Below, piece by piece: positions 29,520 to 63,843 of a stretch of 64,000 nucleotides of DNA. Each line of letters starts with the position of its first letter. The stretch's first letter is position 1. The stretch spans positions 3,956,501-4,020,500 of the forward strand of contig NC_090714.1 of assembly GCF_040954835.1 (NCBI RefSeq), read 5' to 3'. The DNA is from Lepisosteus oculatus. Lineage: Eukaryota > Chordata > Actinopteri > Semionotiformes > Lepisosteidae. The position numbers and the translations under genes were made by a program. The notes under the pieces were generated by a model that did no database searches, was not told the DNA's origin, and saw only the letters and a program-made list of their open reading frames with translations.

Positions 29520-31430
29520 TGGATATCTGGTGGTGCAGGAGGCAACGCCATTGGGAAGAAAGGGCAGAAGAAAGGGAGCGCTAAAAGAAGAGAGACTCTC
29601 TCCATATGAATGGGTTCCCATCCCACACCAGCTCTTACCATACTGCTGCCAATCTTCCCCTTGCTTTTGAAGGCTCTCTCCTGCACTCCTATCAGGCTAT
29701 CCAGTCCCACCATCCTGAAACCTGCTGTTTCAGAAAGGAGAAAGACAGAGAGACAGAATAAAGGAAGGGGAGAGATAGAGTATGGACAGTTTGGAAGAAA
29801 GTGGGAGAGAGAGTCACCGAGGAAGGCGAGACAGAGCAGGACCAATCTTTCTTCATGGTGTGAGGAGGGTCAGACTGTGCGCCTAGCCGCCACCACAGAG
29901 CAAAGAAAAAAATTGGAATGACAAAAAGGAAAAAGAAAAGGGGAAAAAAGGAGAAATTTTACTGAGAGCTTTGTGACAGGTTTCTCCAGAATCTCTGGGC
30001 TGCCTGCTGAAAGACTTACTACAGGTGTAATACAGAATAAAAAATCAAATGTAGAAAAAACCAAACGCACTGAATCTTTATTTCCTCAAACTCTTGAAAC
30101 TACTTGTGTTTTAGAGAAAAATACCATTACTAATGTTTCAGTCTGCCTGTAAGGTCCAAATGCTTCATGCCGTAATTTGTGGGAACCAGCCCTCTGGCTC
30201 GTGGTGAGACCAGGGGTTTGCTATCACATGGTGATTTACAGTACTTTCACAAAGTTCACAATGGTGTGCTTAATTCGAAATTTGTACAATCCTTTTCATA
30301 ATGTCAATGAATTTCCTTTCTGAGATTTAATAACTGGTCTGAGCAATTGGGACTGCAGTGTTCCTTTAATGTTTTTAATCTATTCCTTGTAATTCGACTG
30401 CTATTTTATTCAATTACCAGCAGGGGGCGCGAGTGATTGTTTTTTACCGGGTCACAGAGTCTGTTGGAATAAAGACAACAGGAAGAGCCATCTTGGTCTA
30501 GGAATGTTGCTTTTGTGTATTTATAGACACACTGATAGCCTTGTTGTTCAAAAATGTGCAAACAGAATTATTTTTGGTTAATTACAAATGTTTATAAGTT
30601 TATACTTTAATTCCAAGGTGCACTATAGTTAACACAGAGAAACAAAGGAGTGGCCATGTATAAGTTTTATTTTAGTTATTTAGTGAACCTTACATAAAGT
30701 ATGGTTTAGGGAACATGGTAAGATGTATACAGTTTTAATATGTTTTCATTGGTATTTTGCATGACATTTTGTTATTGATATTTATGTATAGATGTAGAAA
30801 CAGGACCCAGTGTCCACACCAAATTCAATACAAATGGATAAGGTACACCGATGGTGATTACAAAGATGCCACGAACAGGACAAAAAAAATATTTTTCATT
30901 TTAGTTAACAAGGTCATTGATTGTTGTTGTATAATTATTTCAGGAGAATAACGACTATTAATATTACTGTAAATTGAAGGAGTTAAAACTGGGATCTTTG
31001 TTGCCAAGGTAAGAAAGTAATAATTACAACATGCATATGAATAGACTCTGTGGTGAAGTGTAACAGATCAGACGAGGTCAATATCTGTAGATTTACAGAA
31101 GCAGGTGCCACAGCACAGAGCAAGAGAGAAGCACTTGAAAATCCATGGAAAGGAGACAAAACAAAAGGTATGATATTTTTTTATTATGCTTTTGAGTTTA
31201 ACTCACACCTTGGTACTCGCCTTAGACACAAAGCTGACCATCGCTGCCTCCTGTGCCATGCTCATGCCCAGAACACAGTTCCCGAAACAGCACCACGACC
31301 TACTGGACCTGTTCTCTGCATTCTCTGCTAAAACTCTGACTTTAGCAACCAAAAAAAGCTTTCAGCTGTGCCGGATGGGATCCACAATGCCCACACGAAT
31401 GTAGACATGCACAAAAGCTGAACATGCTGA
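29520..31430. other. Intergenic between the small minisatellites and the giant satellite
   Basis: Purine-rich around 29,740-29,960, AT-rich after 30,500. Apart from the CTCF-like motif I recognise nothing. Confidence 0.45.
30417..30430 (+). promoter_or_regulatory. CTCF-type core motif
   Basis: CCAGCAGGGGGCGC is an exact match to the vertebrate CTCF core consensus. It stands about 1 kb before the giant satellite. Function as an insulator or loop anchor is inferred from the motif only. Confidence 0.55.
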
Positions 31431-32115
31431 ACATAGAAACTAGACACAGTCAGACTTGGCTTCCCAGACAGTACACTCTCAGAAAACACTGTGATGACAT
31501 GGAAATAAAAAATGGACATCCTACAACACTGGACATTAAACAGGAAATTGGTAAACCTGGCTGATCTCTGGCTGTCCAGAGATGGCATATTCAGCGGTGT
31601 AACAATGCTAATAGAAACTGGACACAGGCAAACCTGGCTGTCCAGAAATGACAGGCTCGAATACCACAGTCTGGACATGAAACACTGGACAAAGGCAGCA
31701 CTGACTGTCCAGAAACGAGAGAATCAGTTACCAGAGTCTGGACATGAAAAGTGGACACAGGCAGCCCTGACTGTCCAGAAACGAGAGGCTCAGTTACCAG
31801 AGTCTGGACAAAGACACTGGACACAAGCAAACCTGGCTGTCCAGAGAATACATGCTCAGTGGTGTAGTGCTGCGAACAGAAACTGGACACAGGCATCCCT
31901 GACTGTCCAGATACGACATTCTCAGTTACCACAGTCTGGACATAAAACACTGGACACAGGCAGCCCTGACTTTCCAGAAATGACAGGCTCAGTTACCACA
32001 GTCTGGACAAGAAAACTGGACACAAGAAAACCTGTCTGTCCAGAGACGACATGCTCAGTGGTTTAACACTGGACATAGAAACTAGACACAGGCAGCCCTG
32101 ACTGTCTAGAAACGA
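31430..32115. repeat. Giant 66 bp satellite, left edge
   Basis: First recognisable monomers, more diverged than the interior. The monomer runs from CTGGACACAGGCAGCCCTGA through CTGTCCAGAAACGAGAGGCT and CAGTTACCAGAGTCTGGACA to TAGAAA, 66 bases in all. A second monomer type carries CATGCTCAGTGGTGTAACAC in the second half. Confidence 0.9.
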
Positions 32116-32650
32116 GAGACTCAATTAGCATAGTGTGACAGAGGAGCCTGTCACTGGGTACAGGTAGCACAGAAAATACAACATTGATACACCTTCCATT
32201 GAGCGGTTGCTAGATAAGTTCTTGAGGGTGCACACTCAGGGCTTGACTAGTAACTGCTATTACCTAATTTCATATACATTCTCGTACATAAACATACCTA
32301 ATTTCATACACATTCATATACTTAAAACTGGCATGAGTGAGTATTGTGGTGTGAATGGAGAGCGCTCTCAAAATGGATGTTATTCATGGTTTGTTGGTTG
32401 TTGGTGGTTAGATAGTGGTATATCAACAGAGAGAGAGAGAACAGGTAGGTAAGGAGGATCTACCTTTATTTGAATAATTACTTTTGTTTCTTTTTTGGGG
32501 GTTTTGTTATCTGGTGTGAGGGACTTGGAGCCATGTGAATAGACTGCACTTGTTTTGCTTGGGTGCTTTTGCGGCGGAGCCCTTATGAGATAAAACAGAC
32601 CTGCTTTGTCCTTGCTCAGGCCGTTGTGTTACACATAATAAGGACAAAGA
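32116..32650. repeat. Satellite spacer copy A (~535 bp)
   Basis: Unrelated to the monomer. It begins GAGACTCAATTAGCATAG, contains a stem-loop GTGACAG-AGGAGC-CTGTCAC and the 12-base palindrome GAGAGCGCTCTC, then a T-rich run, and ends before GACAAAGAAACTGG. Sequence-type markers are ACAACATTG, AACTGGCATG, GATAGTGG and CAACAGAG. An 81-codon open frame without a leading ATG is present, as in the other copies. Confidence 0.9.
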
Positions 32651-35600
32651 AACTGGACACAGGCAGCCCTGCCTGTCCAGAAATGAAAAGGCTCAGATAC
32701 CACAGTGTGGACAAAAAACACTGGACACAGGCAGCCCTGACTGTCCAAAAATGACAGGCTCAGATACCACAGTCTGGACAAATAATACTGGACACAGGCA
32801 GACTGTCCAGGAACTAGAAGGTCAGTTACCACAGTCTGAACATGAAAAGTAGACACAGGCAAACCTGTCTGTCCAGAAACGAGAGAATCAGTTTCCAGAC
32901 TGTGGACATAGAAACTGGACACAGGCAGTCCTGACTGTCCAGAAACGAGAGCCTCAGTTACCAGAGTCTAGACATAGAAAGTGGACACAGGCAGACTTGA
33001 CTGTCCAGACAAGACAAGCTCAGATACCACAGTCTGGACAAATAAGACTGGACACAGGCAGCCCTGATTGTCCAGAAACTAAAAGCTCAGTTACCACAGT
33101 CTGGACAAGAAAATTGGACACAGGCAAACCTGTCTGTCCAGAAACAAGAGAATCAGATACCACAGTGTGGACATAGAAACTGGACACAGGCAGCCCTGAC
33201 TGTCCAGAAACGAGAGAATCTGTTTCCAGAGTCTGGACATAGAAACTGGACACAGGCAGCCCTGACTGTCCAGGAACTAAAAGGTCAGTTACCACAGTCT
33301 GGACATGAAAAGTGGACACAGGCAAACCTGTCTGTCCAGAAACGAGAGAATCAGTTTCCAGATTGTGGAGATAGAAACTGGACACAGGCAGTCCTGAGTG
33401 TCCAGAAAGGAGAGCCTCAGTTACCACAGTGTGGACACAGAAAATGGACACAGGCAAATCTGGCTGTCCAGAGACTACATGCTCAGTTGTGTAACACTGC
33501 TAATAGAAGCTGGACACAGGCAGCCCTGACTGTCCAAAACTGACAGGTTCAGATACAAGAGTCTGGACATAGAAACTGGACAAAGGCAGCCCTGACTGTC
33601 CAGAATCGAGAGAATCAGTTACCAGAGTCTTGACATAGAAACTGGACACAGGCAGCCCTGACTGTCCAGAAACGAGAGGCTCAGTTACCAGAGTCTGGAC
33701 ATGAAAAGTGGACACAGGCAAACCTGTCTGTCCAGAAACGAGAGAATCAGTTTCCAGACTGTGGACATAGAAACTGGACACAGGCAGTCCTGATTGTCCA
33801 GAAACGAGAGCCTCAGTTACCAGAGTCTAGACATAGAAACTGGACACAGGCAGACCTGACTGTCCAGAGAAGACAAGCTCAGATACCACAGTCTTGACAA
33901 ATAAGTCTGGACACAGGCAGCCCTGATTGTCCAGAAAAGAGAGCCTCAGTTACCAGAGTCTAGACATAAAAATTGGACACAGGCAGACCTCACTGTCCAG
34001 AGAAGACAATCTCAGATACCACAGTCTGGACAAATAAGACTGGACACAGGAAACCCTGATTGTCCAGAAACTAAAAGCTCAGTTACAACAGTCTGGACAA
34101 GAAAAATGGACACAGGCAAACCTGTCTGTCCAGAAACGAGAGAATCAGTTACCACAGTGTGGACATAGAAACTGGACACAGGCAGCCCTGACTGTCCAGA
34201 AATGAGAGAATCTGTTTCCAGAGTCTGGAGATAGAAACTGGACGCAGGCAGCCCTGACTGTCCAGGAACTAGAAGGTCAGTTACCACAGTCTGAACATGA
34301 AAAGTGGACACAGGCAAACCTGTCTGTCCAGAAAAGAGAGCCTCAGTTACCACAGTGTGGACATAGAAACTGGACACAGGCAGCCCTGACTGTCCAGAAA
34401 TGAGAGAATCTGTTTCCAGAGTCTGGAGATAGAAACTGGACACAGGCAGCCCTGACTGTCCAGGAACTAGAAGGTCAGTTACCACAGTCTGAACATGAAA
34501 AGTGGACACAGGCAAACCTGTCTGTCCAGAAACGAGAGAATCAGTTTCCAGATTGTGGAGATAGAAACTGGACACAGGCAAACCTGGCTGTCCAGAGACT
34601 ACATGCTCAGTTCTGTAACACTGCTAACAGAAGCTGGACACAGGCAGCCCTGACTGTCCAAAACTGACAGGCTCAGATACGAGAGTCAGGACATAGAAAC
34701 TGGACACAGGCAGCCCTGACTGTCCAGAATCGAGAGAATCAGTTACCAGAGTCTGGACATAGAAACTGGACACAGGCAGCCCTGACTGTCCAGAAACGAG
34801 AGGCTCAGTTACCAGAGTCTGGACATGAAAAGTGGACACAGGCAAACCTGTCTGTCCAGAAACGAGAGAATCAGTTTCCAGACTGTGGACATAGAAACTG
34901 GACACAGGCAGTCCTGATTGTCCAGAAACGAGAGCCTCAGTTACCAGAGTCTAGACATAGAAACTGGACACAGGCAGACCTGACTGTCCAGAGAAGACAA
35001 GCTCAGATACCACAGTCTTGACAAATAAGTCTGGACACAGGCAGCCCTGATTGTCCAGAAAAGAGAGCCTCAGTTACCAGAGTCTAGACATAAAAATTGG
35101 ACACAGGCAGACCTCACTGTCCAGAGAAGACAATCTCAGATACCACAGTCTGGACAAATAAGACTGGACACAGGAAACCCTGATTGTCCAGAAACTAAAA
35201 GCTCAGTTACAACAGTCTGGACAAGAAAAATGGACACAGGCAAACCTGTCTGTCCAGAAACGAGAGAATCAGTTACCACAGTGTGGACATAGAAACTGGA
35301 CACAGGCAGCCCTGACTGTCCAGAAATGAGAGAATCTGTTTCCAGAGTCTGGAGATAGAAACTGGACGCAGGCAGCCCTGACTGTCCAGGAACTAGAAGG
35401 TCAGTTACCACAGTCTGAACATGAAAAGTGGACACAGGCAAACCTGTCTGTCCAGAAAAGAGAGCCTCAGTTACCACAGTGTGGACATAGAAACTGGACA
35501 CAGGCAGCCCTGACTGTCCAGAAATGAGAGAATCTGTTTCCAGAGTCTGGAGATAGAAACTGGACACAGGCAGCCCTGACTGTCCAGGAACTAGAAGGTC

Positions 35601-38600
35601 AGTTACCACAGTCTGAACATGAAAAGTGGACACAGGCAAACCTGTCTGTCCAGAAACGAGAGAATCAGTTTCCAGATTGTGGAGATAGAAACTGGACACA
35701 GGCAAACCTGGCTGTCCAGAGACTACATGCTCAGTTCTGTAACACTGCTAACAGAAGCTGGACACAGGCAGCCCTGACTGTCCAAAACTGACAGGCTCAG
35801 ATACGAGAGTCAGGACATAGAAACTGGACACAGGCAGCCCTGACTGTCCAGAATCGAGAGAATCAGTTACCAGAGTCTGGACATAGAAACTGGACACAGG
35901 CAGCCCTGACTGTCCAGAAACGAGAGGCTCAGTTACCAGAGTCTGGACATATAATACTGGACACAGGCAGCACTGACTGTCCTGAATCGAGAGAATCAGT
36001 TACTAGAGTCTGGACATAGAAACTGGACACAGGCAGCCCTGACTGTCCAGAAACGAGAGGCTCAGTTACCACAGTCTGGATAAATAATACTGGACACAGG
36101 CAGCCCTGACTGTCCAGAAACGAGAGGCTCAGTTACCAGAGTCTGGACATATAATACTGGACACAGGCAGCCCTGACTGTCCAGACAAGACAAGCTCAGA
36201 TACCACAGTCTGGACAAATAAGACTGGACACAGGAAGCCCTGATTGTCCAGAATCGAGAGAATCAGTTACCAGAGTCTGGAGATAGAAACTGGACACAGG
36301 CAGCCCTGACTGTCCAGAAACGAGAGGCTCAGTTACCAGAGTCTGGACATATAATACTGGACACAGGCAGCCCTGACTGTCCAGAAACGAGAGGCTCAGT
36401 TACCACAGTCTGGACATGAACAGTGGACAAAGGTAAACCTGTCTGTCCAGAAACAAGAGAATCACTTTCCAGACTGTGGACATAGAAATTGGACACAGTC
36501 AGTCCTGACTGTCCAGAAACGAGAGCCTCAGTTATCAGTGTCTAGACATAGAAATTGGACACAGGCAGACCTGACTGTCCAGAAACGAGAGAATTCGTTT
36601 CAGAGTCTGGAGACAGAAACTGGACACAGGCAGCCCTGACTGTCCAGGAACTAGAAGGTCAGTTACCACAGTCTGTACATGAAAAGTGGACACAGGCAAA
36701 CCTGTCTGTCCAGAAATGAGAGAATCAGTTTCCAGATTGTGGAGATAGAAACTGGACACAGGCAGTCCTGACTGTCCAGAAAAGAGAGCCTCAGTTACCA
36801 CAGTGTGGACATAGAAACTGGACACAGGCAGCCCTGACTGTCCAGGAACTAGAAGGTCAGTTACCACAGTCTGAACATGAAAAGTGGACACAGGCAAACC
36901 TGTCTGTCCAGAAACGAGAGAATCAGTTTCCAGATTGTGGAGATAGAAACTGGACACAGGCAAACCTGGCTGTCCAGAGACTACATGCTCAGTTCTGTAA
37001 CACTGCTAACAGAAGCTGGACACAGGCAGCCCTGACTGTCCAAAACTGACAGGCTCAGATACGAGAGTCAGGACATAGAAACTGGACACAGGCAGCCCTG
37101 ACTGTCCAGAATCGAGAGAATCAGTTACCAGAGTCTGGACATAGAAACTGGACACAGGCAGCCCTGACTGTCCAGAAACGAGAGGCTCAGTTACCAGAGT
37201 CTGGACATATAATACTGGACACAGGCAGCACTGACTGTCCTGAATCGAGAGAATCAGTTACTAGAGTCTGGACATAGAAACTGGACACAGGCAGCCCTGA
37301 CTGTCCAGAAACGAGAGGCTCAGTTACCACAGTCTGGATAAATAATACTGGACACAGGCAGCCCTGACTGTCCAGAAACGAGAGGCTCAGTTACCAGAGT
37401 CTGGACATATAATACTGGACACAGGCAGCCCTGACTGTCCAGACAAGACAAGCTCAGATACCACAGTCTGGACAAATAAGACTGGACACAGGAAGCCCTG
37501 ATTGTCCAGAATCGAGAGAATCAGTTACCAGAGTCTGGAGATAGAAACTGGACACAGGCAGCCCTGACTGTCCAGAAACGAGAGGCTCAGTTACCAGAGT
37601 CTGGACATATAATACTGGACACAGGCAGCCCTGACTGTCCAGAAACGAGAGGCTCAGTTACCACAGTCTGGACATGAACAGTGGACAAAGGTAAACCTGT
37701 CTGTCCAGAAACAAGAGAATCAGTTTCCAGACTGTGGACATAGAAATTGGACACAGTCAGTCCTGACTGTCCAGAAACGAGAGCCTCAGTTATCAGTGTC
37801 TAGACATAGAAATTGGACACAGGCAGACCTGACTGTCCAGAAACGAGAGAATTCGTTTCAGAGTCTGGAGATAGAAACTGGACACAGGCAGCCCTGACTG
37901 TCCAGGAACTAGAAGGTCAGTTACCACAGTCTGTACATGAAAAGTGGACACAGGCAAACCTGTCTGTCCAGAAATGAGAGAATCAGTTTCCAGATTGTGG
38001 AGATAGAAACTGGACACAGGCAGTCCTGACTGTCCAGAAAAGAGAGCCTCAGTTACCACAGTGTGGACATAGAAACTGGACACAGGCAGCCCTGACTGTC
38101 CAGAAATGAGAGAATCTGTTTCCAGAGTCTGGAGATAGAAACTGGACACAGGCAGCCCTGACTGTCCAGGAACTAGAAGGTCAGTTACCACAGTCTGAAC
38201 ATGAAAAGTGGACACAGGCAAACCTGTCTGTCCAGAAACGAGAGAATCAGTTTCCAGATTGTGGAGATAGAAACTGGACACAGGCAAACCTGGCTGTCCA
38301 GAGACTACATGCTCAGTTGTGTAACACTGCTAACAGAAGCTGGACACAGGCAGCCCTGACTGTCCAAAACTGACAGGCTCAGATACGAGAGTCAGGACAT
38401 AGAAACTGGACACAGGCAGTCCTGACTGTCCAGAATCGAGAGAATCAGTTACCAGAGTCTGGACATAGAAACTGGACACAGGCAGCCCTGACTGTCCAGA
38501 AACGAGAGGCTCAGTTACCAGAGTCTGGACATATAATACTGGACACAGGCAGCACTGACTGTCCTGAATCGAGAGAATCAGTTACTAGAGTCTGGACATA

Positions 38601-41581
38601 GAAACTGGACACAGGCAGCCCTGACTGTCCAGAAACGAGAGGCTCAGTTACCACAGTCTGGATAAATAATACTGGACACAGGCAGCCCTGACTGTCCAGA
38701 AACGAGAGGCTCAGTTACCAGAGTCTGGACATATAATACTGGACACAGGCAGCCCTGACTGTCCAGACAAGACAAGCTCAGATACCACAGTCTGGACAAA
38801 TAAGACTGGACACAGGAAGCCCTGATTGTCCAGAATCGAGAGAATCAGTTACCAGAGTCTGGAGATAGAAACTGGACACAGGCAGCCCTGACTGTCCAGA
38901 AACGAGAGGCTCAGTTACCAGAGTCTGGACATATAATACTGGACACAGGCAGCCCTGACTGTCCAGAAACGAGAGGCTCAGTTACCACAGTCTGGACATG
39001 AACAGTGGACAAAGGTAAACCTGTCTGTCCAGAAACAAGAGAATCAGTTTCCAGACTGTGGACATAGAAATTGGACACAGTCAGTCCTGACTGTCCAGAA
39101 ACGAGAGCCTCAGTTATCAGTGTCTAGACATAGAAATTGGACACAGGCAGACCTGACTGTCCAGAAACGAGAGAATTCGTTTCAGAGTCTGGAGATAGAA
39201 ACTGGACACAGGCAGCCCTGACTGTCCAGGAACTAGAAGGTCAGTTACCACAGTCTGTACATGAAAAGTGGACACAGGCAAACCTGTCTGTCCAGAAATG
39301 AGAGAATCAGTTTCCAGATTGTGGAGATAGAAACTGGACAAAGGCAGTCCTGACTGTCCAGAAAAGAGAGCCTCAGTTACCACAGTGTGGACATAGAAAC
39401 TGGACACAGGCAAACCTGGCTGTCTAGAGACTACATGCTCAGTTGTGTAACACTGCTAACAGAAGCTGGACACAGGCAGCCCTGACTGTCCAAAACTGAC
39501 AGGCTCAGATACAAGAGTCTGGACATAGAAACTGGACACAGGCAGCCCTGACTGTCCAGAATCGAGAGAATCAGTTACCAGAGTCTGGAGATAGAAACTG
39601 GACACAGGCAGCCCTGACTGTCCAGGAACTAGAAGGTCAGTTACCAGAGTCTGGACATATAATACTGGACACAGGCAGCCCTGCCTGTCCTGAATCGAGA
39701 GAATCGGTTACTAGAGTCTGGACATAGAAACTGCACACAGGCAGCCCTGACTGTCCAGAAACGAGAGGCTCAGTTACCACAGTCTGGACATAAAATACTG
39801 GACACAGGCAGTCCTAACTGTCCAGAAACGAGAGAATCAGTTTCCAGACTGTGGACATAGAAACTGGAAACAGTCAGTCCTGACTGTCCAGAAACGAGAG
39901 CCTCAGTTACGAGTCTAGACATAGAAATTGGACACAGGCAGACCTGACTGTCCAGAGAAGACAAGCTCAGATACCATAGCCTGGACAAATAAGACTGGAC
40001 ACAGGCAACCCTGATTGTCCAGAAACTAAAAGCTCAGTTACCACAGTCTGGACATATAATACTGGACACAGGCAGCCCTGACTGTCCAGAAACGAGAGGC
40101 TCAGTTACCACAGTCTGGATATGAAAAGTGGACACAGGCAAACCTGTCTGTCCAGAAACGAGAGAATCAGTTTCCAGACTGTGGACATAGAAACTGGACA
40201 CAGTCAGTCCTGACTGTCCAGAGAAGACAAGCTCAGATACCACAGTCTGGACAAATAAGACTGGACACAGGCAACCCTGATTGTCCAGAAACTAAAAGCT
40301 CAGTTACCACAGTCTGGACAAGAAAATTGGACACAGGCAAACCTGTCTGTCCAGAAACGAGAGAATCGGTTACCACAGTGTGGACAACAAAACGGGACAC
40401 AGGCAAACCTGTCTGTCCTGAAAGGAGAGAATCATTTTCCAGAGTCTGGACATAGAAACTGGACACAGGCAGCCCTGACTGTCCAGACATGACAAGCTCA
40501 GATACCACAGTCTGAACAAATAAGACTGGACACAGGCAGCCCTGATTGTCCAGAAACTAAAAGCTCAGTTACCACAGTCTGGACAAGAAAATTGGACACA
40601 GGCAAACCTGTCTGTCCAGAAACGAGAGAATCAGTAACCACAGTGTGGACAACAAAACGGGACACAGGCAAACCTGTCTGTCCTGAAAGGAGAGAATCAT
40701 TTTCCAGAGTCTGGACATAGAAACTGGACACAGGCAGACCTGACTGTCCAGACAAGACAAGCTCAGATTCCACAGTCTGAACAAATAAGACTGGACACAG
40801 GCAGCCCTGATTGTCCCGAAACTAAAAGCTCAGTTACCACAGTCTGGACAAGAAAATTAGACACAGGCAAACATGGCTGTCCAGAGACGACATGCTCAGT
40901 GGTGTAACACTGCTAATAGAAGCTGGACACAGGTAGCCCTGCCTGTCCAGAATCGAGAGAATCAGTTACCAGTGTCTGGACATAGAAACTGGGCACAGGC
41001 AGCCCTGGCTGTCCAGACCTGCTATTAGGAGCCCTAACTGTCCAGAAACGAGAGGCTCAGTTACCACAGTGTGGACAACAAAATGGGACACAGGCAAACC
41101 TGTCTGTCCTGAAAGGAGAGAATCATTTTCCAGAGTCTGGACATAGAAACTGGACACAGGCAGCCCTGACTGTCCAGACATGACAAGCTCAGATACCACA
41201 GTCTGGACAAATAAGACTGGACACAGGCAGACCTGATTGTCCAGAGATTAGAAGCTCTGTTACCACAGTCTGGACATGAAAACTGGACACGGGCAAACCT
41301 GTCTGTCCAGAGACGACATGCTCAGTGGTGTAGTGCTGCGAACAGAAACTGGACACAGGCATCCCTGACTGTCCAGATACGACATTCTCAGTTACCACAG
41401 TCTGGACAAAAAACACTGGACACAGGCAGCCCTGACTGTCCAGAAATGACAGGCTCAGTTACCACAGTCTGGACAAGAAAACTGGACACAGGTAAACCTG
41501 TCTGTCCAGAGACGACATGCTCAGTGGTTTAACACTGGACATAGAAACTGGACACAGGCATCCCTGATTGTCTAGAAACGA
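32651..41581. repeat. Giant 66 bp satellite, block 1 (8.9 kb)
   Basis: About 135 monomers by length. It contains a near-perfect tandem repeat of 1,124 bp (33,500-34,620 repeated at 34,624-35,745; two 189-codon minus-strand frames are identical) and then three copies of a unit spaced 1,258 and 1,324 bp (about 36,000-39,420). The difference, 66, is exactly one monomer. Confidence 0.92.
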
Positions 41582-42116
41582 GAGACTCAATTAGCATAGT
41601 GTGACAGAGGAGCCTGTCACTGGGTACAGGTAGCACAGAAAATACATAATTGATACACCTTCCATTGAGCGGTTGCTAGATAAGTTCCTGAGGGTGCACA
41701 CTCAGAGCTTGACTAGTAACTGCTATTACCTAATTTCATATATATTCATGTACATAAACATACCTAATTTCATACACATTCATATACTTAAAACAGGTAT
41801 GAGTGAGTATTGTGGTGTGAATGGAGAGCGCTCTCAAAATGGATGTTATTCATGGTTTGTTGGTTGTTGGTGGTTAGGTAGTGGTATATCAACGGAGAGA
41901 GAGAGAACAGGTAGGTAAGGAGGATCTATCTTTATTTGAATAATTACTTTTGTTTCTTTTTTGGGGGTTTTGTTATCTGGTGTGAGGGACTTGGAGCCAT
42001 GTGAATAGACTGCACTTGTTTTGCTTGGGTGCTTTTGCGGCGGAGCCCTTATGAGATAAAACAGACCTGCTTTGTCCTTGCTCAGGCCGTTGTGTTACAC
42101 ATAATAAGGACAAAGA
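41582..42116. repeat. Satellite spacer copy B
   Basis: Near-identical to copy A in length and content. Sequence-type markers differ: ATACATAATTG, AACAGGTATG, GGTAGTGG, CAACGGAG. Confidence 0.9.
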
Positions 42117-48100: not shown

Positions 48101-48388
48101 GCAAACCTATCTGTCCAGAGACGACATGCTCAGTGGTGTAGTGCTGCGAACAGAAACTGGACACAGGCATCCCTGACTGTCCAGATACGACATTCTCAGT
48201 TACCACAGTCTGGACAAAAAACACTGGACACAGGCAGCCCTGACTGTCCAGAAATGACAGGCTCAGTTACCACAGTCTGGACAAGAAAACTGGACACAGG
48301 TAAACCTGTCTGTCCAGAGACGACATGCTCAGTGGTTTAACACTGGACATAGAAACTGGACACAGGCATCCCTAATTGTCTAGAAACG
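42117..48388. repeat. Giant 66 bp satellite, block 2 (6.3 kb)
   Basis: About 95 monomers by length. Its monomer order matches block 3 at an offset of 6,808 that later becomes 7,004 and 6,938 bp. A 1,221 bp spaced pair (46,553 and 47,774) is also present. Confidence 0.92.
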
Positions 48389-51900: not shown

Positions 51901-54900
51901 CACAGGCAAACCTGTCTGTCCAGAAACGAGAGCCTCAGTTACCACAGTGTGGACATAGAAACTGGACACAGGCAGCCCTGACTGTCCAGAATAGAGAGAA
52001 TCAGTTACCAGAGTCTGGACATAGAAACTGGACACAGGCAGCCCTGACTGTCCAGAATCGAGAGAATCAGTTACCAGAGTCTGGACATAGAAACTGGACA
52101 CAGGCAGCCCTGACTGTCCAGAAACGAGAGGCTCAGTTACCAGAGTCTGGACATATAATACTGGACAGAGGCAGCCCTAACTGTCCTGAATCGAAAGAAT
52201 CAGTTACCAGAGTCTGGACATAGAAACTGGACACAGGCAGCCCTGACTGTCCACGAACTAGAAGGTCAGTTACCACAGTCTGGACATGAAAAGTGGACAC
52301 AGGCAAACCTGTCTGTCCAGAAACGAGAGAATCAGTTTCCAGACTGTGGACATAGAAACTGGACACAGGCAGTCCTGACTGTCCAGAAACGAGAGCCTCA
52401 GTTACCAGAGTCTAGACATAGAAACTGGACACAGGCAGTCCCGACTGTCCAAAACTGACAGGCTCAGATACAAGAGTCTGCACATAGAAACTGGACAAAG
52501 GCAGCCCTGACTGTCCAGAATCGAGAGAATCAGTTACCAGAGTCTGGAAATAGAAAGTGGACACAGGCAGCCCTGACTGTCCAGAAACGAGAGGCTCAGT
52601 TACCAGAGTCTGGACATATAATACTGGACACAGGCAGCCCTGACTGTCCAGGAACCAAAAGGTCAGTTACCACAGTTTGGACATGAAAAGTGGACACAGG
52701 CAAACCTGTCTGTCCAGAATCGAGAGAATCAGTTACCAGAGTCTGGAGATAGAAACTGGACACAGGCAGCCCTGACTGTCCAGAAATGAGAGGCTCAGTT
52801 ACCAGAGTCTGGACATGTAATACTGGACAGAGGCAGCCCTGACTGTCCTGAATCGAGAGAATCAGTTACTAGAGTCTGGACATAGAAACTGGACACAGGC
52901 AGCCCTGACTGTCCAGAAACGAGAGGCTCAGTTGCCACAGTCTGGACAAATAATACTGGACACAGGCACCCCTGACTGTCCAGAAACGAGAGGCTCAGTT
53001 ACCAGACTCTGGACATATAATACTGGACACAGGCAGTCCTGACTGTCCAGAAACGAGAGCCTCAGTTACCAGAGTCTAGACATAGAAACTGGACACAGGC
53101 AGACCTGACTGTCCAGACAAGACAAGCTCAGATACCACAGTCTGGACAAATAAGACTGGTCACAGGCAGCCCTGATTGTCCAGAAACAAGAGAATCAGTT
53201 CCCACAGTGTGGACATAGAAACTGGACACAGACAGTCCTGACTGTCCAGAAATGAGAGAATCTGTTTCCAGAATCTGGACATAGAAACTGGACACAGGCA
53301 GCCCTGACTGTCCAGGAACTAGAAGGTCAGTTACCACAGTCTGGACATGAAAAGTGGACACAGGCAAACCTGTCTGTCCAGATACGAGTGAATCAGTTTC
53401 CAGATTGTGGAGATAGAAACTGGACACAGGCAGCCCTGACTGTCCAGAAACAAGAGGCTCAGTTACCAGAGTCTGGACATATAATACTGGACACAGGCAG
53501 CCCTGACTGTCCAGACACGAGAGGCTCAGTTACCACAGTCTGGACATGAAAAGTGGACACAGGCAAACCTGTCTGTCCAGAAACGAGAGAATCAGTTTCC
53601 AGACTGTGGACATAGAAACTGGACACAGGCAGCCCTGACTGTCCAGAAACGAGAGAATCTGTTTCCAGAGTCTGGACATATAATACTGGACACAGGCAGC
53701 CCTGACTGTCCAGACACGAGAGGCTCAGTTACCACAGTCTGGACATGAAAAGTGGACACAGGCAAACCTGTCTGTCCAGAAACGAGAGAATCAGTTTCCA
53801 GACTGTGGACATAGAAACTGGACACAGGCAGCCCTGACTGTCCAGAATCGAGAGAATCAGTTACCAGAGTCTGGACATAGAAACTAGACACAGGCAGCCC
53901 AGACTGTCCAGAAACGAGAGGCTCAGTTACCAGACTGTGGACATAGAAACTGGACACAGGCAGTCCTGACTGTCCAGAAACGAGAGCCTCAGTTACCAGA
54001 GTCTAGACATAGAAACTGGACACAGGCAGACCTGACTGTCCAGACAAGACAAGCTCAGATACCACAGTCTGGACAAATAAGACTGGTCACAGGCAGCCCT
54101 GATTGTCCAGAAACAAGAGAATCAGTTCCCACAGTGTGGACATAGAAACTCGACACAGACAGTCCTGACTGTCCAGAAATGAGAGAATCTGTTTCCAGAA
54201 TCTGGACATAGAAACTGGACACAGGCAGCCCTGACTGTCCAGGAACTAGAAGGTCAGTTACCACAGTCTGGACATGAAAAGTGGACACAGGTAAACCTGT
54301 CTGTCCAGAAACAAAAGAATCAGTTACCACAGTGTGGACATAGAAACTGGACACAGGCAGCCCTGACTGTCCAGAAACAAGAGAATGTGTTTCCAGAGTC
54401 CGGACATAGAAACTGGACACAGGCAGCCCTGACTGTCCAGGAAACAGAAGGTCAGTTACCACAGTCTGGACATGAAAAGTGGACACAGGCAAACCTGTCT
54501 GTCCAGATACGAGTGAATCAGTTTCCAGATTGTGGAGACAGAAACTGGACACAGGCAGCCCTGACTGTCCAGAAACAAGAGGCTCAGTTACCAGAGTCTG
54601 GACATATAATACTGGACACAGGCAGCCCTGACTGTCCAGACACGAGAGGCTCAGTTACCACAGTCTGGACATGAAAAGTGGACACAGGCAAACCTGTCTG
54701 TCCAGAAACGAGAGAATCAGTTTCCAGACTGTGGACATAGAAACTGGACACAGGCAGCCCTGACTGTCCAGAAACGAGAGAATCTGTTTCCAGAGTCTGG
54801 ACATAGAAACTGGACACAGGCAGCCCTGACTGTCCAGGCATGCTATTAGCAGCCCTGACTGTCCAGAAACGAGAGGCTCAGTTACCACAGTGTGGACAAC

Positions 54901-56382
54901 AAAACGGGACACAGGCAAACCTGTCTGTCCTGAAAAGAGAGAATCATTTTCCAGAGTCTGGACATAGAAAGTGGACACAGGCAGCCCTGACAGTCCAAAA
55001 ATGACAGGCTCAGATACCAGAGTCTGGACAAATAATACTGGACACATGCAGCCCTGACTGTCCAGGAACCAGAAGGTCAGTTACCACAGTCTGGACATGA
55101 AAAGTGGACACAGGCAAACCTGTCTCTCCAGATACGAGAGAATCAGTTTCCAGATTGTGGAGATAGAAACTGGACACAGGCAGCCCTGACTGTCCAGAAT
55201 CGAGAGAATCAGTTACCAGAGTCTGGACATAGAAACTGGACACAGGCAGCCCTGACTGTCCAGAATCGAGAGAATCAGTTACCAGAGTCTGGAGATAGAA
55301 ACTGGACAAAGGCAGCCCTGACTGTCCAGAAACGAGAGGTTCACTTACCACAGTCTGGACATGAAAAGTGGACACAGGCAAACCTGTCTGTCCAGAAGCG
55401 AGAGAATCAGTTTCCAGACTGTGGACATAGAAACTGGACACAGTCAGTCCTGACTGTCCAGAAACGAGAGCCTCAGTTACCAGAGTCTAGACATAGAAAT
55501 TGGACACAGGCAGCCCAGACTGTCCAGAAACGAGAGGCTCAGTTACCAGACTGTGGACATAGAAACTGGACACAGGCAGTCCTGACTGTCCAGAAACGAG
55601 AGCCTCAGTTACCAGAGTCTAGACATAGAAACTGGACACAGGCAGACCTGACTGTCCAGACAAGACAAGCTCAGATACCACAGTCTGGACAAATAAGACT
55701 GGACACAGGCAGCCCTGATTGTCCAGAAACTAAAAGCTCAGTTACCACAGTCTGGACAAGAAAATTGGACACAGGCAAACCTGTCTGTCCAGAAACAAGA
55801 GAATCAGTTACCACAGTGTGGACATAGAAACTGGACACAGGCAGCCCTGACTGTCCAGAAACTAGAAGGTCCTGACTGTCCAGAAACGAGAGCCTCAGTT
55901 ACCAGAGTCTAGACATAGAAATTGGACACAGGCAGACCTGACTGTCCAGAGAAGACAAGCTCAGATACCATAGTTTGGACAAATAAGACTGGACACAGGC
56001 AACCGTGATTGTCCAGAAACTAAAAGCTCAGTTACTACAGTCTGGACAAGACAATTGGACACAGGCAAACATGGCTGTCCAGAGACGACATGCTCAGTGG
56101 TGTAACACTCCTAATAGAAGCTGGATACAGGTAGCCCTGCCTGTCCAGAATCGAGAGAATCAGTTTTCCAGTGTCTGGACATAGAAACTGGACACAGGCA
56201 GCCCTGACTGTCCAGACATGCTATTAGCAGCCCTGACTGTCCAGAAACGAGAGGCTCAGTTACCAGAGTGTGGACAAGAAAATTGGACACAGGTAAACCT
56301 GTCTGTCCAGAGACGACATGCTCAGTGGTTTAACACTGGACATAGAAACTGGACACAGGCATCCCTGATTGTCTAGAAACGA
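48926..56382. repeat. Giant 66 bp satellite, block 3 (7.5 kb)
   Basis: About 113 monomers by length. The first half parallels block 2. The longest plus-strand open frame of the whole satellite is here (51,657-52,223, 188 codons of the 22-residue period). Confidence 0.92.
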
Positions 56383-56918
56383 GAGACTCAATTAGCATAG
56401 TGTGACAGAGGAGCCTGTCACTGGGTACAGGTAGCACAGAAAATACATAATTGATACACCTTCCATTGAGCGGTTGCTAGATAAGTTCCTGAGGGTGCAC
56501 ACTCAGAGCTTGACTAGTAACTGCTATTACCTAATTTCATATATATTCATGTACATAAACATACCTAATTTCATACACATTCATATACTTAAAACAGGTA
56601 TGAGTGAGTATTGTGGTGTGAATGGAGAGCGCTCTCAAAATGGATGTTATTCATGGTTTGTTGGTTGTTGGTGGTTAGGTAGTGGTATATCAACGGAGAG
56701 AGAGAGAACAGGTAGGTAAGGAGGATCTATCTTTATTTGAATAATTACTTTTGTTTCTTTTTTGGGGGTTTTGTTATCTGGTGTGAGGGACTTGGAGCCA
56801 TGTGAATAGACTGCACTTGTTTTGCTTGGGTGCTTTTGCGGCGGAGCCCTTATGAGATAAAACAGACCTGCTTTGTCCTTGCTCAGGCCGTTGTGTTACA
56901 CATAATAAGGACAAAGAA
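56383..56918. repeat. Satellite spacer copy D
   Basis: Carries the copy B set of markers (ATACATAATTG, AACAGGTATG, GGTAGTGG, CAACGGAG). Confidence 0.9.
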
Positions 56919-59900
56919 ACTGGACACAGGCAGCCCTGGCTGTCCAGAAATGACAGGCTCAGATACCACAGTGTGGACATAAAACACTGTGACTGTCCAA
57001 GACTGTCCAGGAACTAGAAGGTCAGTTACCACAGTCTGGACATGAAAAGTGGACACAGGCAAACCTGTCTGTCCAGAAACGAGAGCCTCAGTTACCAGAG
57101 TCTAGACATAGAAACTGGACACAGGCAGACCTGACTGTCCAGACAAGACAAGCTCAGATACCACAGTCTGGACAAATAAGACTGGACACAGGCAGCCCTG
57201 ATTGTCCAGAAACTAAAAGCTCAGTTACCACAGTCTGGACAAGAAAATTGGACACAGGCAAACCTGTCTGTCCAGAAACAAGAGAATCAGTTACCACAGT
57301 GTGGACATAGAAACTGGACACAGGCAGCCCTGACTGTCCAGAAACTAGAAGGTCAGTTACCACAGACTGGACATGAAAAGTGGACACAGGCAAACCTGTC
57401 TGTCCAGAAATGGGAGAATCAGTTTCCAGATAGTGGAGAAAGAGACACAGGCAGTCCTGAGTGTCCAGAAACGAGAGCCTCAGTTACCACAGTGTTGACA
57501 TAGAAACTGGACACAGGCAATCCTGGCTGTCCAGAGACTACATGCTCAGTTGTGTAACACTGCTAATAGAAGCTGGACACAGGCAGCCCTGACTGTCCAA
57601 AACTGACAGGCTCAGATACAAGAGTCTGGACATAGAAACTGGACACAGGCAGCCCTGACTGTCCAGAATCGAGAGAATCAGTTACCAGAGTCTGGACATA
57701 GAAACTGGACACAGGCAGCCCTGACTGTCCAGAAACGAGAGGCTCAGTTACCAGAGTCTGGACATATAATACTGGACACAGGCAGCCCTGACTGTCCAGA
57801 AACGAGAGGCTCAGTTACCACAGTCTGGACATGAAAAGTGGACACAGGCAAACCTGTCTGTCCAGAAACGAAAGAATCAGTTTCCAGACTGTGGACATAG
57901 AAACTGGACACAGTCAGTCCTGACTGTCCAGAAACGAGAGCCTCAGTTACCAGAGTCTAGACATATAAGTTGGACACAGGCAGACCTGACTGTCCAGAGT
58001 AGACAAGCTCAGATACCACAGTCTGGATAAATAAGATTGGACACAGGCAACCCTGATCCTCCAGAAACTAAAAGCTCAGTTACCACAGTCTGAACAAGAA
58101 AATTGGACACAGGCAAACCTGTCTGTCCAGAAACGAGAGAATCAGTTACCACAGTGTGGGCATAGAAACTGGACACAGGCAGCCCTGACTGTACAGAAAC
58201 GAGAGAATCAGTTACCACAGTGTGGACAAAGATACTGGACACAGGTAAACCTGGCTGTCCAGAGACTACATGTTCAGTGGTGTAGCGCTGCGAACAGAAA
58301 CTGGACACAGGCATCCCTAACTGTCCAGATATGACATTCTCAGTTATGTCTGGACAAAAAACAGTGGACACAGGTAGCCCTGACTGTCCAGAAACGAGAG
58401 AATCAGTTTCCAGACTGTGGACATAGAAACTGGACACAGGCAGTCCTGACTGTCCAGAAACGAGAGCCTCAGTTACCAGAGTCTAGACATAGAAACTGGA
58501 CACAGGCAGACCTGACTGTCCAGACAAGACAAGCTCAGATACCACAGTCTGGACAAATAAGACTGGACACAGGCAGCCCTGATTGTCCAGAAACTAAAAG
58601 CTCAGTTACCACAGTCTGGACAAGAAAATTGGACACAGGCAAACCTGTCTGTCCAGAAACAAGAGAATCAGTTACCACAGTGTGGACATAGAAACTGGAC
58701 ACAGGCACCCCTGACTGTCCAGAAACTAGAAGGTCAGTTACCACAGACTGGACATGAAAAGTGGACACAGGCAAACCTGTCTGTCCAGAAATGGGAGAAT
58801 CAGTTTCCAGATAGTGGAGATAGAGACACAGGCAGTCCTGAGTGTCCAGAAACGAGAGCCTCAGTTACCACAGTGTTGACATAGAAACTGGACACAGGCA
58901 ATCCTGGCTGTCCAGAGACTACATGCTCAGTTGTGTAACACTGCTAATAGAAGCTGGACACAGGCAGCCCTGACTGTCCAAAACTGACAGGCTCAGATAC
59001 AAGAGTCTGGACATAGAAACTGGACACAGGCAGCCCTGACTGTCCAGAATCGAGAGAATCAGTTACCAGAGTCTGGACATATAATACTGGACACAGGCAG
59101 CCCTGACTGTCCAGAAACGAGAGGCTCAGTTACCACAGTCTGGACATGAAAAGTGGACACAGGCAAACCTGTCTGTCCAGAAACGAAAGAATCAGTTTCC
59201 AGACTGTGGACATAGAAACTGGACACAGTCAGTCCTGACTGTCCAGAAACGAGAGCCTCAGTTACCAGAGTCTAGACATAGAAGTTGGACACAGGCAGAC
59301 CTGACTGTCCAGAGTAGACAAGCTCAGATACCACAGTCTGGATAAATAAGACTGGACACAGGCAACCCTGATCCTCCAGAAACTAAAAGCTCAGTTACCA
59401 CAGTCTGAACAAGAAAATTGGACACAGGCAAACCTGTCTGTCCAGAAACGAGAGAATCAGTTACCACAGTGTGGACATAGAAACTGGACACAGGCAGCCC
59501 TGACTGTACAGAAACGAGAGAATCAGTTACCACAGTGTGGACAAAGATACTGGACACAGGTAAACCTGGCTGTCCAGAGACTACATGTTCAGTGGTGTAG
59601 CGCTGCGAACAGAAACTGGACACAGGCATCCCTAACTGTCCAGATATGACATTCTCAGTTATGTCTGGACAAAAAACAGTGGACACAGGTAGCCCTGACT
59701 GTCCAGAAACGAGAGAATCAGTTTCCAGATTCTGGACATAGAAACTGGACACAGGCAGCCCTGACTATCCAGAAACAAGAGGCTCACTTACCACAGTGTG
59801 GACAACAAAACTGGACACAGGCAAACCCGGCTGTCTAGAAACTACATGCTCAGTGGTGTAACACTGCTAATAGAAACTGGACACAGGCAGCCCTGACTGT

Positions 59901-62900
59901 CCAGAAATGACAAGCTCAGATACCACAGTCTGGAGAAAACATACTGGACACAGGCAGCCCTGACTGTCCTGAAACTAAAAGCTCAGTTACCACAGTCTGG
60001 ACAAGAAAACTGGACACAGTCAATCCTGTCTATCCAGAGACAGCATGCTCAGTGGTGTATCACTGCTAATAGAAACTGGACACAGACAGCCCTGACTGTC
60101 CAGACAGAGAGGCTCAGTTACCACAGTGTGGATATAGAAAGTGGACACAGGCAGCCCTGACTGTCCAAAAATTACAGGCTCAGATACCACAGTCTGGACA
60201 AAAAATATTGGATGCAGGCAGCCCTGACTGTCCAGAAACGAGAGAATCAGTTTCCAGAGTCCGGACATAGAAACTGGACACAGGCAAACCTGTCTGTCCA
60301 GAGACGATATGCTCAGTGGTGTAACACTGCTAATAGAAACTGGACACAGACCTGGCTATCTAGAAATGACAGGCTCGGATACCAAAGTCTGGACAAAAAA
60401 ACACTGGACACAGGCATCCCTGACTGTCCAGAAACGAGAGAATCAGTTACTAGAGTCTGGACATAGAAACTGGACACAGGCAGCCCTGACTGTCCAGAAA
60501 GGAGAGGCTCGGTTACCACAGTGTGGACAAGAAAACTGGACACAGGCAAACCTGGCTGTCCAGAAACAACATGCTCAGTGGTGTAACACTGCGAATAGAA
60601 ACTGGACACAGGCAGACCTGGCTGTCCAGAAATGACAGGCTCAGACACCAGAGTCTGGACATGAAACACTGCACAAAGGCAGTACTGACTGTCCAGAAAC
60701 TAGAGAATCAGTTACCAGAGTATGGACATAGATACTGGACACAGGCAGCCCTGACTGTCCAGAAAGGAGAGGTTCAGTTACCACAGTGTGGACAAAGATA
60801 CTGGACACAAGCAAACCTGGCTGTCCAGAGACTACATGCTCAGTGGTGTAGTGCTGCGAACAGAAACTGGACACAGGCATCCCTGACTGTCCAGATATGA
60901 CATTTTCAGTTACCACAGTGTGGACATTCTCAGTTATGTCTGGACAAATAAGACTGGACACAGGCAGCCCTGACTGTCCAGAAACGAGAGAATCAGTTTC
61001 CGGATTCTGGACATAGAAACTGGACACAGGCAGCCCTGACTGTCCAGAAACGAGAGGCTCAGTTACCACAGTGTGGACAACAAAACTGGACACAGGCAAA
61101 CCTGGCTGTCCAGAAACTACATGCTCAGTGGTGTAACACTGCTAATAGAAACTGGACACAGGCAGCCCTGACTGTCCAGAAATGACAAGCTCAGTTACCA
61201 CAGTCTGGACAAAAAAACTGGACACAGTCAATCCTGTCTGTCCAGAGAAGGCATGCTCAGTGGTGTTACACTGCTAATAGAAACTGGACACAGGCAGCCC
61301 TAACTGTCCAGAAATTAGAGGCTCATTTACCACAGTGTGGACATAGAAACTGGACACAGGCAGCCCTGAATGTCCAGAAAGGAGAGCCTCCGTTACCACA
61401 GTGTGGACAAAGATACTGGACACAGGCAAACCTGGCTGTCCAAAGACTACATGTTCAGAGGTGTAGCGCTGCGAACAGAAACTGGACACAGGCATCCCTG
61501 ACTGTCCAGATATGACATTCTCAGTTACCACAGTGTGGACAAGAAAACTGGACAAAGGCAGCCCTGACTGTCCAGAAACGAGAGGCTCAGTTACCACAGT
61601 GCGGACAAGAAAACTGGACACAGGCAAACCTGGCTGTCCAGAAACTACATGCTCAGTGGTGTAACACTGCGAACAGAAACTGGACACAGGCAGACCTGGC
61701 TGTCCAGAAATGACAAGCTCAGTTACCACACTGTGGACAAGAAAACTGGACACAGGCAGCCCTGACTGTCCAGAAACGAGAGGCTCAGTTACCACAGTGC
61801 GGACAAGAAAACTGGACACAGGCAATCCTGTCTGTCCAGAGACGGCATGCTCAGTGGTGTAACACTGCTAATAGAAACTGGACGCAGGCAGCCCTGACTG
61901 TCCAGAAACGAGAGAATCAGTTTCCAGAGTTTGGAAATAGAAACTGGACACAGGCAAACCTGTCTGTCCAGAGACGACATGCTCAGTGGTGTAACACTGC
62001 TAATAGAAACTGGACACAGGCAGACCTGACTGTCCAGAAAGGAGAGGCTCGGTTACCACAGTGTGGACAAAGATACTGGACACAGACAAACCTGGCTGTC
62101 CAAAGACTACATGTTCAGTGGTGTAGTGCTGCGAACAGAAACTGGACACAGGCATCCCTGACTGTCCAGATACGACATTTTCAGTTACCACAGTGTGGAC
62201 ATTCTCAGTTATGTCTGGACAAATAAGACTGGACACAGGCAGCCCTGACTGTCCAGAAATGAGAGGCTCAGTTACCACAGTGTGGACAAGAAAACTAGAC
62301 ACAGGCAGCCCTGACTGTCCAGAAACGAGAGAATCATTTTCCAGAGTCTGGACATAGAAACTGGACACAGGCAGCCCTAACTGTCCTGAAACGAGAGGCT
62401 CAGTTACCACAGTGTGGACAAGAAAACTGGACACAGGCAAACCTGGCTGTCCAGAAACTACATGCTCAGTGGTGTAAGACTGTGAATAGAAACTGGACAC
62501 AGGCAGCCCTGACTGTTCAGAAATGACAAGCTCAGATACCACAGTCTGGACAAAAAATACTGGACACAGGAAGCCCTGACTGTCCAGAATTGAGAGAATC
62601 AGTTACCAGAATCTGGATATAGAAACTGGACACAGGCAGCCCTGACTGTCCAGAAACGTCAAGCTCAGATACCACAGTCTGGACAAATAAGACTGGACAC
62701 AAGCAGCCCTGATTGTCCAGACACTAAAAGCTCAGTTACCACAGTCTGGACAAGTAAACTGGACACAGGCAATCCTGTCTGTCCAGAGACGGCATGCTCA
62801 GTGGTGTAACACTGCTAATAGAAACTGGACACAGGCAGACCTGGCTGTCCAGAAACGACAAGCTCAGATACCAGAGTCTGGACAAATAAGATTGGACACA

Positions 62901-63057
62901 GGCAGCCCTGATTGTCCAGAAACTAAAAGCTTAGTTACCGCAGTCTGGACAAGAAAACTGGACACAGTCAATCCTGTCTGTCCAGAGACAACATGCTCAG
63001 TGCTTTAACACTGGACATAGAAACTGGACACAGGCATCCCTGATTGTCTAGAAACGA
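56919..63057. repeat. Giant 66 bp satellite, block 4 (6.1 kb)
   Basis: About 93 monomers by length. A tandem pair with offsets of 1,381 bp (57,154 and 58,535) and 1,315 bp (58,009 and 59,324) again differs by one monomer. From about 59,800 on the monomers become more mixed, with many of the CATGCTCAGTGG type. Confidence 0.92.
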
Positions 63058-63593
63058 GAGACTCAATAAGCAAAGTGTGACAGAGGAGCCTGTCACTGGG
63101 TACAGGTAGCACAGAAAATACAACATTGATACACCTTCCATTGAGCGGTTGCTAGATAAGTTCCTGAGGGTGCACACTCAGAGCTTGACTAGTAACTGCT
63201 ATTACCTAATTTCATATATATTCATGTACATAAACATACCTAATTTCATACACATTCATATACTTAAAACTGGCATGAGTGAGTATTGTGGTGTGAATGG
63301 AGAGCGCTCTCAAAATGGATGTTATTCACGGTTTGTTGGTTGTTGGTGGTTAGGTAGTGGTATATCAACGGAGAGAGAGAGAACAGGTAGGTAAGGAGGA
63401 TTTACCTTTATTTGAATAATTACTTTTGTTTCTTTTTTGGAGGTATTGTTATCTGGTGTGAAGGACTTGGAGCCATGTGAATAGACTGCACTTGTTTTGC
63501 TTGGGTGCTTTTGCGGTGGAGCCAGTCTGAGATAAAACGGTCCTACTTTGGCCTTACTCAGGCCGTTGTGTTACACATAATATGGACAAAGAA
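63058..63593. repeat. Satellite spacer copy E
   Basis: Mosaic copy: it has ACAACATTG and AACTGGCATG of the A/C type but GGTAGTGG and CAACGGAG of the B/D type, plus private changes in its 3' half. Confidence 0.88.
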
Positions 63594-63843
63594 ACTGGAC
63601 ACAGGCAGACCTGACTGTCCAGAAACGCCAAGCTCAGTTACCGCAGTCTGGACAGAGAAACTGGACACAGGCAAACCTGGCTTTCCAGACACAACAGGCT
63701 CCTATACCACAGTCTGGATAAATAGGACTTGACACAGGTAGAATCGAGAGAATCAGTTACCAGAGTCTGGACGTAGAAACTGTCCAGAAACTAGAAGCTC
63801 AGTTACCACAGTCTGGAAAAGAAAACTGGAATAAGGCAAACCT
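63594..63843. repeat. Giant 66 bp satellite, right edge
   Basis: Fewer than four diverged monomers, one visibly shortened. The array stops at the CYP2K exon 9 fragment. Confidence 0.85.

What the first reader, a model, noticed from the sequence alone, without database searches (positions are those of the whole stretch)
31430..63843. A 32 kb satellite of 66 bp monomers inside a P450 gene cluster
About 450 monomers by length, broken only by five spacers. It sits between CYP2K-like sequences on both sides, so it is a large tandem array in gene-bearing DNA, not an evident centromere or telomere. The right junction with an exon is sharp. I know of no described family with this monomer.
Basis: partly seen in the sequence, partly recalled or inferred. 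Interest (0 to 1): 0.8.

Follow-up and report, generated by a model that had tools for sequence, protein, structure and literature searches.

The report
Satellite array born from retrotransposon code
A 32,000-base tandem repeat beside cytochrome P450 genes is built from a 66-base unit that matches 22 codons of a LINE retrotransposon's reverse-transcriptase gene, and the same genome still holds single, short, long and giant versions of that repeat.

Summary
Window 31431-63814 gives 455 hits to a 65/66-bp monomer, broken by five spacers of 508 bp. The spacers are 95.7-100% alike and mark higher-order units of 6.7-9.5 kb. Spacer-bearing arrays with a shared left flank lie at four places, three on contig C19 and one on C26.

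The monomer has a traceable origin. Its consensus aligns without gaps to 22 codons near the C-terminus of a LINE reverse-transcriptase ORF: 54 of 66 bases for the window, 61 of 66 for a divergent relative. That ORF is 856 aa, matches Pfam RVT_1 at E=1.3e-36, and holds two copies of the unit before a Cys/His motif. Intermediates exist in the same genome: 1,126 unit-to-tail junctions, 2,579 unit-to-unit junctions, and arrays inside open frames of 666 and 708 aa.

The window array is non-coding. Best reading: a LINE-ORF-derived satellite, grown by unequal exchange and carried with its flank in segmental duplications. No function was shown. Tests for a conserved RNA hairpin did not support one. 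It is a new member of a known kind, with unusually complete intermediates.

The parts
31431..63814 (+). 66-bp monomer array, 455 HMM hits; + strand is the sense strand of the source LINE ORF
32135..32642 (+). spacer copy 1 (508 bp)
   Evidence: genome copies
41601..42108 (+). spacer copy 2 (508 bp)
48409..48916 (+). spacer copy 3 (508 bp)
56402..56909 (+). spacer copy 4 (508 bp)
63077..63584 (+). spacer copy 5 (508 bp)
26382..28700 (+). left flank shared by the arrays: 98% at two other C19 places, 79-89% in pieces at C26; CpG observed/expected near 1 over most of 24001-28250
27758..28110 (+). dispersed short repeat (SINE-like) inside the shared flank; many 85-90% copies, not reported in the C26 copy of the flank
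28704..29044 (+). 55-bp tandem repeat, six CTCF-like motif matches on the - strand
29067..29238 (+). 40/80-bp tandem repeat; much longer (about 2.1 kb) in the divergent C26 locus E
29240..31430 (+). rest of the shared left flank; collinear pieces at 71-83% in locus E (C26:15,628,678-15,633,879)
30414..30432 (+). strongest CTCF-like motif in the window (21.1 bits; matrix recalled)
63822..64000 (-). P450 heme-region exon fragment at the right junction, frame broken
12068..12442 (+). ORF with P450 exon, Pfam p450 E=2e-06

Best explanation
The array is a satellite derived from coding sequence of a LINE retrotransposon. Shown: the 66-bp monomer equals 22 codons of a LINE reverse-transcriptase ORF, the stretch just before a C-terminal Cys/His motif; one long ORF already carries two copies of it; tandem arrays of it occur in many sizes in the same genome; the window array is the large non-coding end of that series, organised in higher-order units with a 508-bp spacer and sharing its left flank with three other large arrays. 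Inferred: a duplication of 66 bp arose in the LINE ORF, where its length kept the frame; LINE copies spread it; unequal exchange or slippage lengthened some arrays; one ancestral array gained the spacer, which was then amplified with the monomers; segmental duplications carried array plus flank to the other C19 places and to C26. The array most likely has no selected function; its likely effect is as a substrate for unequal recombination and as methylated DNA next to the P450 genes.
For: Monomer HMM hits the LINE ORF at exactly two adjacent places, E=8.4e-15 and 7.1e-12; the best hit in 200 shuffled copies had E=1.6. Gap-free 66/66 alignment to unit 2: window 81.8%, C26 array D 83.3%, locus E 92.4%. 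Source ORF: 856 aa without stop, RVT_1 E=1.3e-36, best solved relatives R2 and LINE-1 ORF2. The tail peptide has 150 scored matches of 3,256 candidates genome-wide. Unit-to-tail junction 1,126 hits and unit-to-unit junction 2,579 hits, controls 0. Of 40 exact tail junctions listed on contig C1, 7 have a listed exact unit-to-unit junction 65-66 or 131 bp upstream, so single-unit copies seem commoner (exact matches only). Arrays in 666- and 708-aa open frames. Window arrays: about 380 stops in each of three + frames, consensus with a stop in the LINE frame. Spacer identity and higher-order lags of 6808, 1124, 1258 and 2582 bp. Array CpG observed/expected 0.15.
Against: The window consensus is only 82% identical to the LINE unit, and the direct link runs through the closer relatives E, L054 and L055. 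No array was seen between about 30 units and several hundred. Interiors of arrays B and C were read only around spacers, and C26:5,985,213-5,994,446 was not read. The timing and order of steps were not dated. The CpG-rich left flank and its partial conservation in locus E leave room for a function.
Confidence: 0.88

Rival explanations
1. The array is the body of a transcribed non-coding RNA gene driven by the CpG-rich left flank, with the tandem hairpins as its working part.
For: CpG observed/expected near 1 over about 4 kb left of the array; the left flank, its tandem repeats and a 66-mer array are collinear in a diverged copy on C26, with blocks of 67-88% identity; each monomer folds into CTGGACACAGG/CCTGACTGTCCAG; rare A-to-G changes exceed T-to-C on the + strand in arrays A and D, 2.94 against 1.0 and 8.19 against 1.62 per site.
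Against: The hairpin is not supported by paired changes: in locus E several pairs hold in only 56-69% of monomers, and paired changes in A and D are few; fold z-scores of the four repeat units are only -0.10 to -1.54; no Rfam match. The A-to-G excess rests on few columns and on homogenised copies. No RNA data were available.
Confidence: 0.1
2. The LINE captured the 66-bp unit from an older satellite, rather than the satellite arising from the LINE.
For: Similarity alone does not give direction; the window array is large and the LINE unit is short.
Against: The unit lies inside a continuous reverse-transcriptase ORF, next to a Cys/His motif, and single-unit copies appear commoner than multi-unit ones. 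Unit 1 of the LINE is 69 bp; unit 2 and the satellite share a 3-base shorter form.
Confidence: 0.05
3. The array is a repetitive protein-coding gene with a 22-aa repeat.
For: 66 bp is 22 codons; open frames of up to 263 aa occur in the window array, and 666- and 708-aa frames in other arrays.
Against: 389, 379 and 381 stops in the three + frames of the window array; 93 spacings of 67 bp shift the frame; the consensus carries a stop in the LINE frame.
Confidence: 0.01
4. The array is largely an assembly artefact.
For: Array length was not checked with reads.
Against: Window without N; five spacers differ by up to 4.3% and units by 14-21%, which collapsed or duplicated assembly would not give; matching arrays on another contig.
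Confidence: 0.03

Closest known systems
Satellites related to LINE ORF2: HinfI/SCR1 of chicken (CR1), PROsat of Phodopus (LINE-1), Pvc20 of harbour seal (LINE-1), as listed in PMC9659126 (passages and section 2.2 read)
   Same: Satellite monomer related to LINE ORF2 sequence.
   Different: Here the whole monomer is one 22-codon stretch, the source ORF carries it in tandem in frame, and single, double, about 30-fold and several-hundred-fold states coexist in one genome. For the named ones I saw only the review's wording.
Common cetacean satellite, related to the 3' end of LINE-1 (PMC9659126)
   Same: Satellite from the 3' part of a LINE.
   Different: Non-coding 3' end there; coding C-terminal part here.
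Tandem repeats in 3' untranslated regions of Ogre-type plant retrotransposons (PisTR-A, PMC9659126 section 2.2; PMC7004042 seen only as a search listing)
   Same: A short tandem repeat inside an active element seeds long satellite arrays.
   Different: Untranslated region of an LTR element there; translated region of a LINE here.
DXZ4-type macrosatellite (PMC3491370, seen only as a listing; properties otherwise recalled)
   Same: Large tandem array with CTCF-like motifs and CpG-rich DNA close by.
   Different: No CTCF-like motif at 11 bits or more inside the array or its spacers; the motifs lie in the left flank.

Membership tests
Satellite DNA derived from a LINE ORF | Long head-to-tail array of a short monomer | tested here: met
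Satellite DNA derived from a LINE ORF | Monomer homologous over its length to LINE coding sequence | tested here: met
   54 of 66 and 61 of 66 bases, gap-free; HMM E=8.4e-15
Satellite DNA derived from a LINE ORF | Source element is a LINE with reverse transcriptase | tested here: met
   RVT_1 E=1.3e-36; PDB R2 and LINE-1 ORF2. LINE clade not assigned
Satellite DNA derived from a LINE ORF | Direction LINE to satellite shown by outgroups | not testable with these tools
   No other vertebrate genome was on hand; direction is inferred from the ORF context
Centromeric satellite | Present as long arrays on most chromosomes or at CENP-A chromatin | tested here: not met
Structured repeat RNA (Xist/Rsx-like) | Stem kept by paired changes among monomers | tested here: not met
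   few paired changes, several pairs at 56-69% in locus E
Structured repeat RNA (Xist/Rsx-like) | Transcribed | not testable with these tools
   No RNA data; promoter-like CpG content only
DXZ4-like CTCF macrosatellite | CTCF site in each repeat unit | tested here: not met
   No match of 11 bits or more between 31431 and 63814 (matrix recalled)
piRNA cluster | Source of abundant small RNAs | not testable with these tools
   No small-RNA data

The most novel reading that the evidence does not exclude
The LINE keeps an in-frame, variable-number 22-aa repeat just before its C-terminal Cys/His motif as a working part of its protein, and this coding repeat is a steady nursery for satellites: copies with 1, 2 and about 30 units in open frame coexist, and some grow into arrays of hundreds of units. 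The giant arrays, headed by a CpG-rich flank with CTCF-like motifs, may in turn be transcribed through LINE-homologous repeats.
Probability: 0.15. Interest if true: 0.75.

Novelty: new member of a known kind. Interest (0 to 1): 0.5.

Why it matters
Where satellites come from is usually a guess, because the source and the steps are gone. Here source ORF, two-unit ORF, open-frame arrays, broken arrays and giant higher-order arrays can be read in one genome. A duplication length that is a multiple of three could let a tandem repeat survive inside an active LINE and be spread by it, which is a testable route from coding sequence to satellite. The window case also shows such an array sitting in, and duplicated with, a P450 gene cluster.

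Tried and rejected
RNA gene reading: pursued first because of the CpG-rich flank, the dyad in each monomer and the collinear locus E. Rfam gave no match. The stem is not supported by paired changes and fold z-scores are weak. By eye the 55-bp repeat seemed to show a paired change between loci A and E (note 3); I did not test it further and claim nothing from it.

Strand asymmetry of rare substitutions leans toward + strand transcription but rests on few columns and homogenised copies; not used for the verdict.

CTCF scan: 10 matches of 11 bits or more in the window against a mean of 3.1 in 20 shuffles; none in the array. The matrix was recalled from memory.

Protein-coding reading of the window array: rejected by stops and frame shifts.

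Pfam on the LINE tail alone found nothing; the longer ORF did.

P450 genes beside arrays B and C: three P450 peptides found no match at E<=1e-3 in the 6-8 kb flanks L039-L042, so 'inside a P450 cluster' is shown for A and D only.

Literature: one search found 0 papers, one search listed 20 of 62, one search listed 10, one search listed 3 (CYP2K with tandem repeat), one search listed 15 of 56, one search listed 4. Only PMC9659126 was opened (passages and section 2.2). In these listings I saw no paper on a 22-codon repeat in a LINE ORF, but most listed papers were not opened.

Full report
What is there. The window lies at C19:3,956,501-4,020,500 of a 1.2-Gb assembly in 813 contigs. TRF and a monomer HMM confirm the array: 455 hits, 31431-63814, one strand, spacings of 66 bp (328) and 67 bp (93). 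Five 508-bp spacers break it; they are 100, 98.6, 97.7, 97.7 and 95.7% identical to the first. Cutting at the spacers gives four full units of 9,466, 6,808, 7,993 and 6,675 bp; best unit-to-unit alignments are 79-86% identical, and self-similarity peaks at lags of 6808, 1258, 2582, 1324 and 1124 bp. So the spacers are part of a higher-order repeat, not separate insertions.

Other copies. The spacer has 53 matches in the genome. I count 26 of them in four clusters: window (5), C19 at 5.41-5.45 Mb (7), C19 at 6.26-6.29 Mb on the other strand (7), and C26 at 5.94-6.00 Mb (7, one of them partial). The other 27 are pieces of 14 dispersed copies at lower identity, so the spacer looks like part of an older dispersed repeat. 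Array ends read in fetched loci give extents of about 32.4 kb (A, window), 35.2 kb (B), 37.5 kb (C) and 60.6 kb (D, C26). B and C were read only at their ends and around spacers, and 9.2 kb of D was not read. B and C are inverted copies of each other: their left flanks are 95-98% and their right flanks 95.5% identical. A and D share 8 kb of right flank at 94%. All four share a left flank: window 26382-28700 at 98% in B and C and in pieces of 79-89% in D, and window 30596-31430 at 91-93%. The right flank of B and C differs from that of A and D.

Locus E. The left-flank search also found a diverged copy at C26:15,628,678-15,633,879. Read over 20 kb, it has, in the same order, blocks similar to the window flank, a short 55-bp-type repeat, a much longer 40-bp-type repeat, and a 66-mer array of only 19 hits. 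Its monomer consensus is closer to the LINE (61 of 66) than the window's (54 of 66).

Where the monomer comes from. Searching with 3.3 kb of locus E, array included, returned 69 matches; nearly all fall in the array part and lie on many contigs, at 68-85% identity. Two such arrays, L054 and L055, end in a sequence that reads LSDHSLAIETGHRQTWLPREDR-type 22-aa units followed by LCSHC...HFLL. A protein search with unit plus tail gave 150 scored matches of 3,256 candidates, with open frames up to 856 aa. The 856-aa frame (L056, C4:1,647,301-1,650,300) is a reverse transcriptase: RVT_1 E=1.3e-36 at residues 222-496, nearest solved chains R2 and LINE-1 ORF2. Residues 729-751 and 752-773 are two copies of the unit (69 and 66 bp), followed at once by the Cys/His motif LCSHC-x9-H-x4-C (motif read by eye). 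The window monomer HMM hits exactly these two units (E=8.4e-15 and 7.1e-12; best of 200 shuffles E=1.6). A tblastn of the ORF against the window, locus E and flanks, shown for hits that reach outside residues 740-800, lists only alignments within residues 691-812 (first 60 rows shown), so the rest of the LINE is not seen there.

The series. Unit-to-tail junctions number 1,126 (564 forward, 562 reverse) and unit-to-unit junctions 2,579 (1,431 and 1,148), up to two mismatches, controls 0. Of the 40 exact tail junctions listed on C1, 7 have a listed exact unit-to-unit junction 65-66 or 131 bp upstream; being exact-only, 7 is a lower bound. A query of four units gave 185 matches of 2,853 candidates (150 scored); rows at C2:65,262,219-65,264,036 lie in one 708-aa open frame and rows at C30:2,890,764-2,892,239 in one 666-aa open frame, no stops. 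Openness over 2 kb may reflect homogenised, stop-free monomers and is no proof of coding. L054 and L055 arrays are frame-broken. The window array has 389, 379 and 381 stops in the + frames and its consensus has a stop in the LINE frame.

How it works, and what is inferred. The most likely course: a 66-bp duplication in the LINE ORF, spread by the LINE, lengthened at some sites by unequal exchange or slippage, then one lineage that gained a spacer and a CpG-rich left flank and was copied with that flank to four places. Shown are the homology, the sizes, the shared flanks and the higher-order repeats; order and mechanism are inferred. In A and D the right junction cuts into a P450 heme-region exon, and the window copy of that exon has a broken frame, so array gain there went with loss or truncation of a P450 gene end.

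Function. The left flank is CpG-rich relative to expectation (ratio 0.6-1.6 in 250-bp steps between 24001 and 28500) while the array is at 0.15 and the first 24 kb at 0.35, which fits an unmethylated flank and a methylated array (inference). CTCF-like motifs lie in the flank, not in the array (recalled matrix). Hairpin conservation failed. I therefore give no function to the array.

Novelty. Satellites from LINE ORF2 are known (PMC9659126). This is a new member. What is unusual is that the monomer is a whole number of codons, that an intact-looking ORF holds it twice, and that all stages coexist. Whether the satellite or LINE is already named could not be checked.

Noticed in passing
C14 of G000 (e.g. 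C14:3,557,500 to C14:49,602,670): A large share of the 150 listed LINE-tail matches fall on contig C14, many with the same score and the same 228-aa open frame, spread along the contig; a young LINE burst or a special chromosome is possible.
   Followed up: no
window 24001-28500: About 4 kb with CpG observed/expected near 1 even where G+C is only 0.34-0.43, against 0.35 for the first 24 kb.
   Followed up: partly
window 28127, 28749-29021, 30414: CTCF-like motifs, including one per unit of the 55-bp repeat; the 28127 site recurs in fetched copies B, C, D and E of the flank, and a weaker match at the 30414 position recurs in E.
   Followed up: partly
window 32135-32642 and 14 dispersed places: The spacer resembles pieces of a dispersed repeat at up to 93% identity; its class was not identified.
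   Followed up: no
C26:15,622,001-15,642,000 (L051, L052): Diverged collinear locus in which the 40-bp repeat, not the 66-mer, is expanded (about 2.1 kb).
   Followed up: partly
genome-wide core-pattern count: 2,652 core hits exceed what I estimate for arrays A-D from densities; roughly 700 hits seem to lie in further arrays that were not located.
   Followed up: no
C1:19.6-22.1 Mb and C2:65.2-66.1 Mb: Unit-to-unit junctions cluster strongly in these stretches (listed part), suggesting regional hot spots.
   Followed up: no
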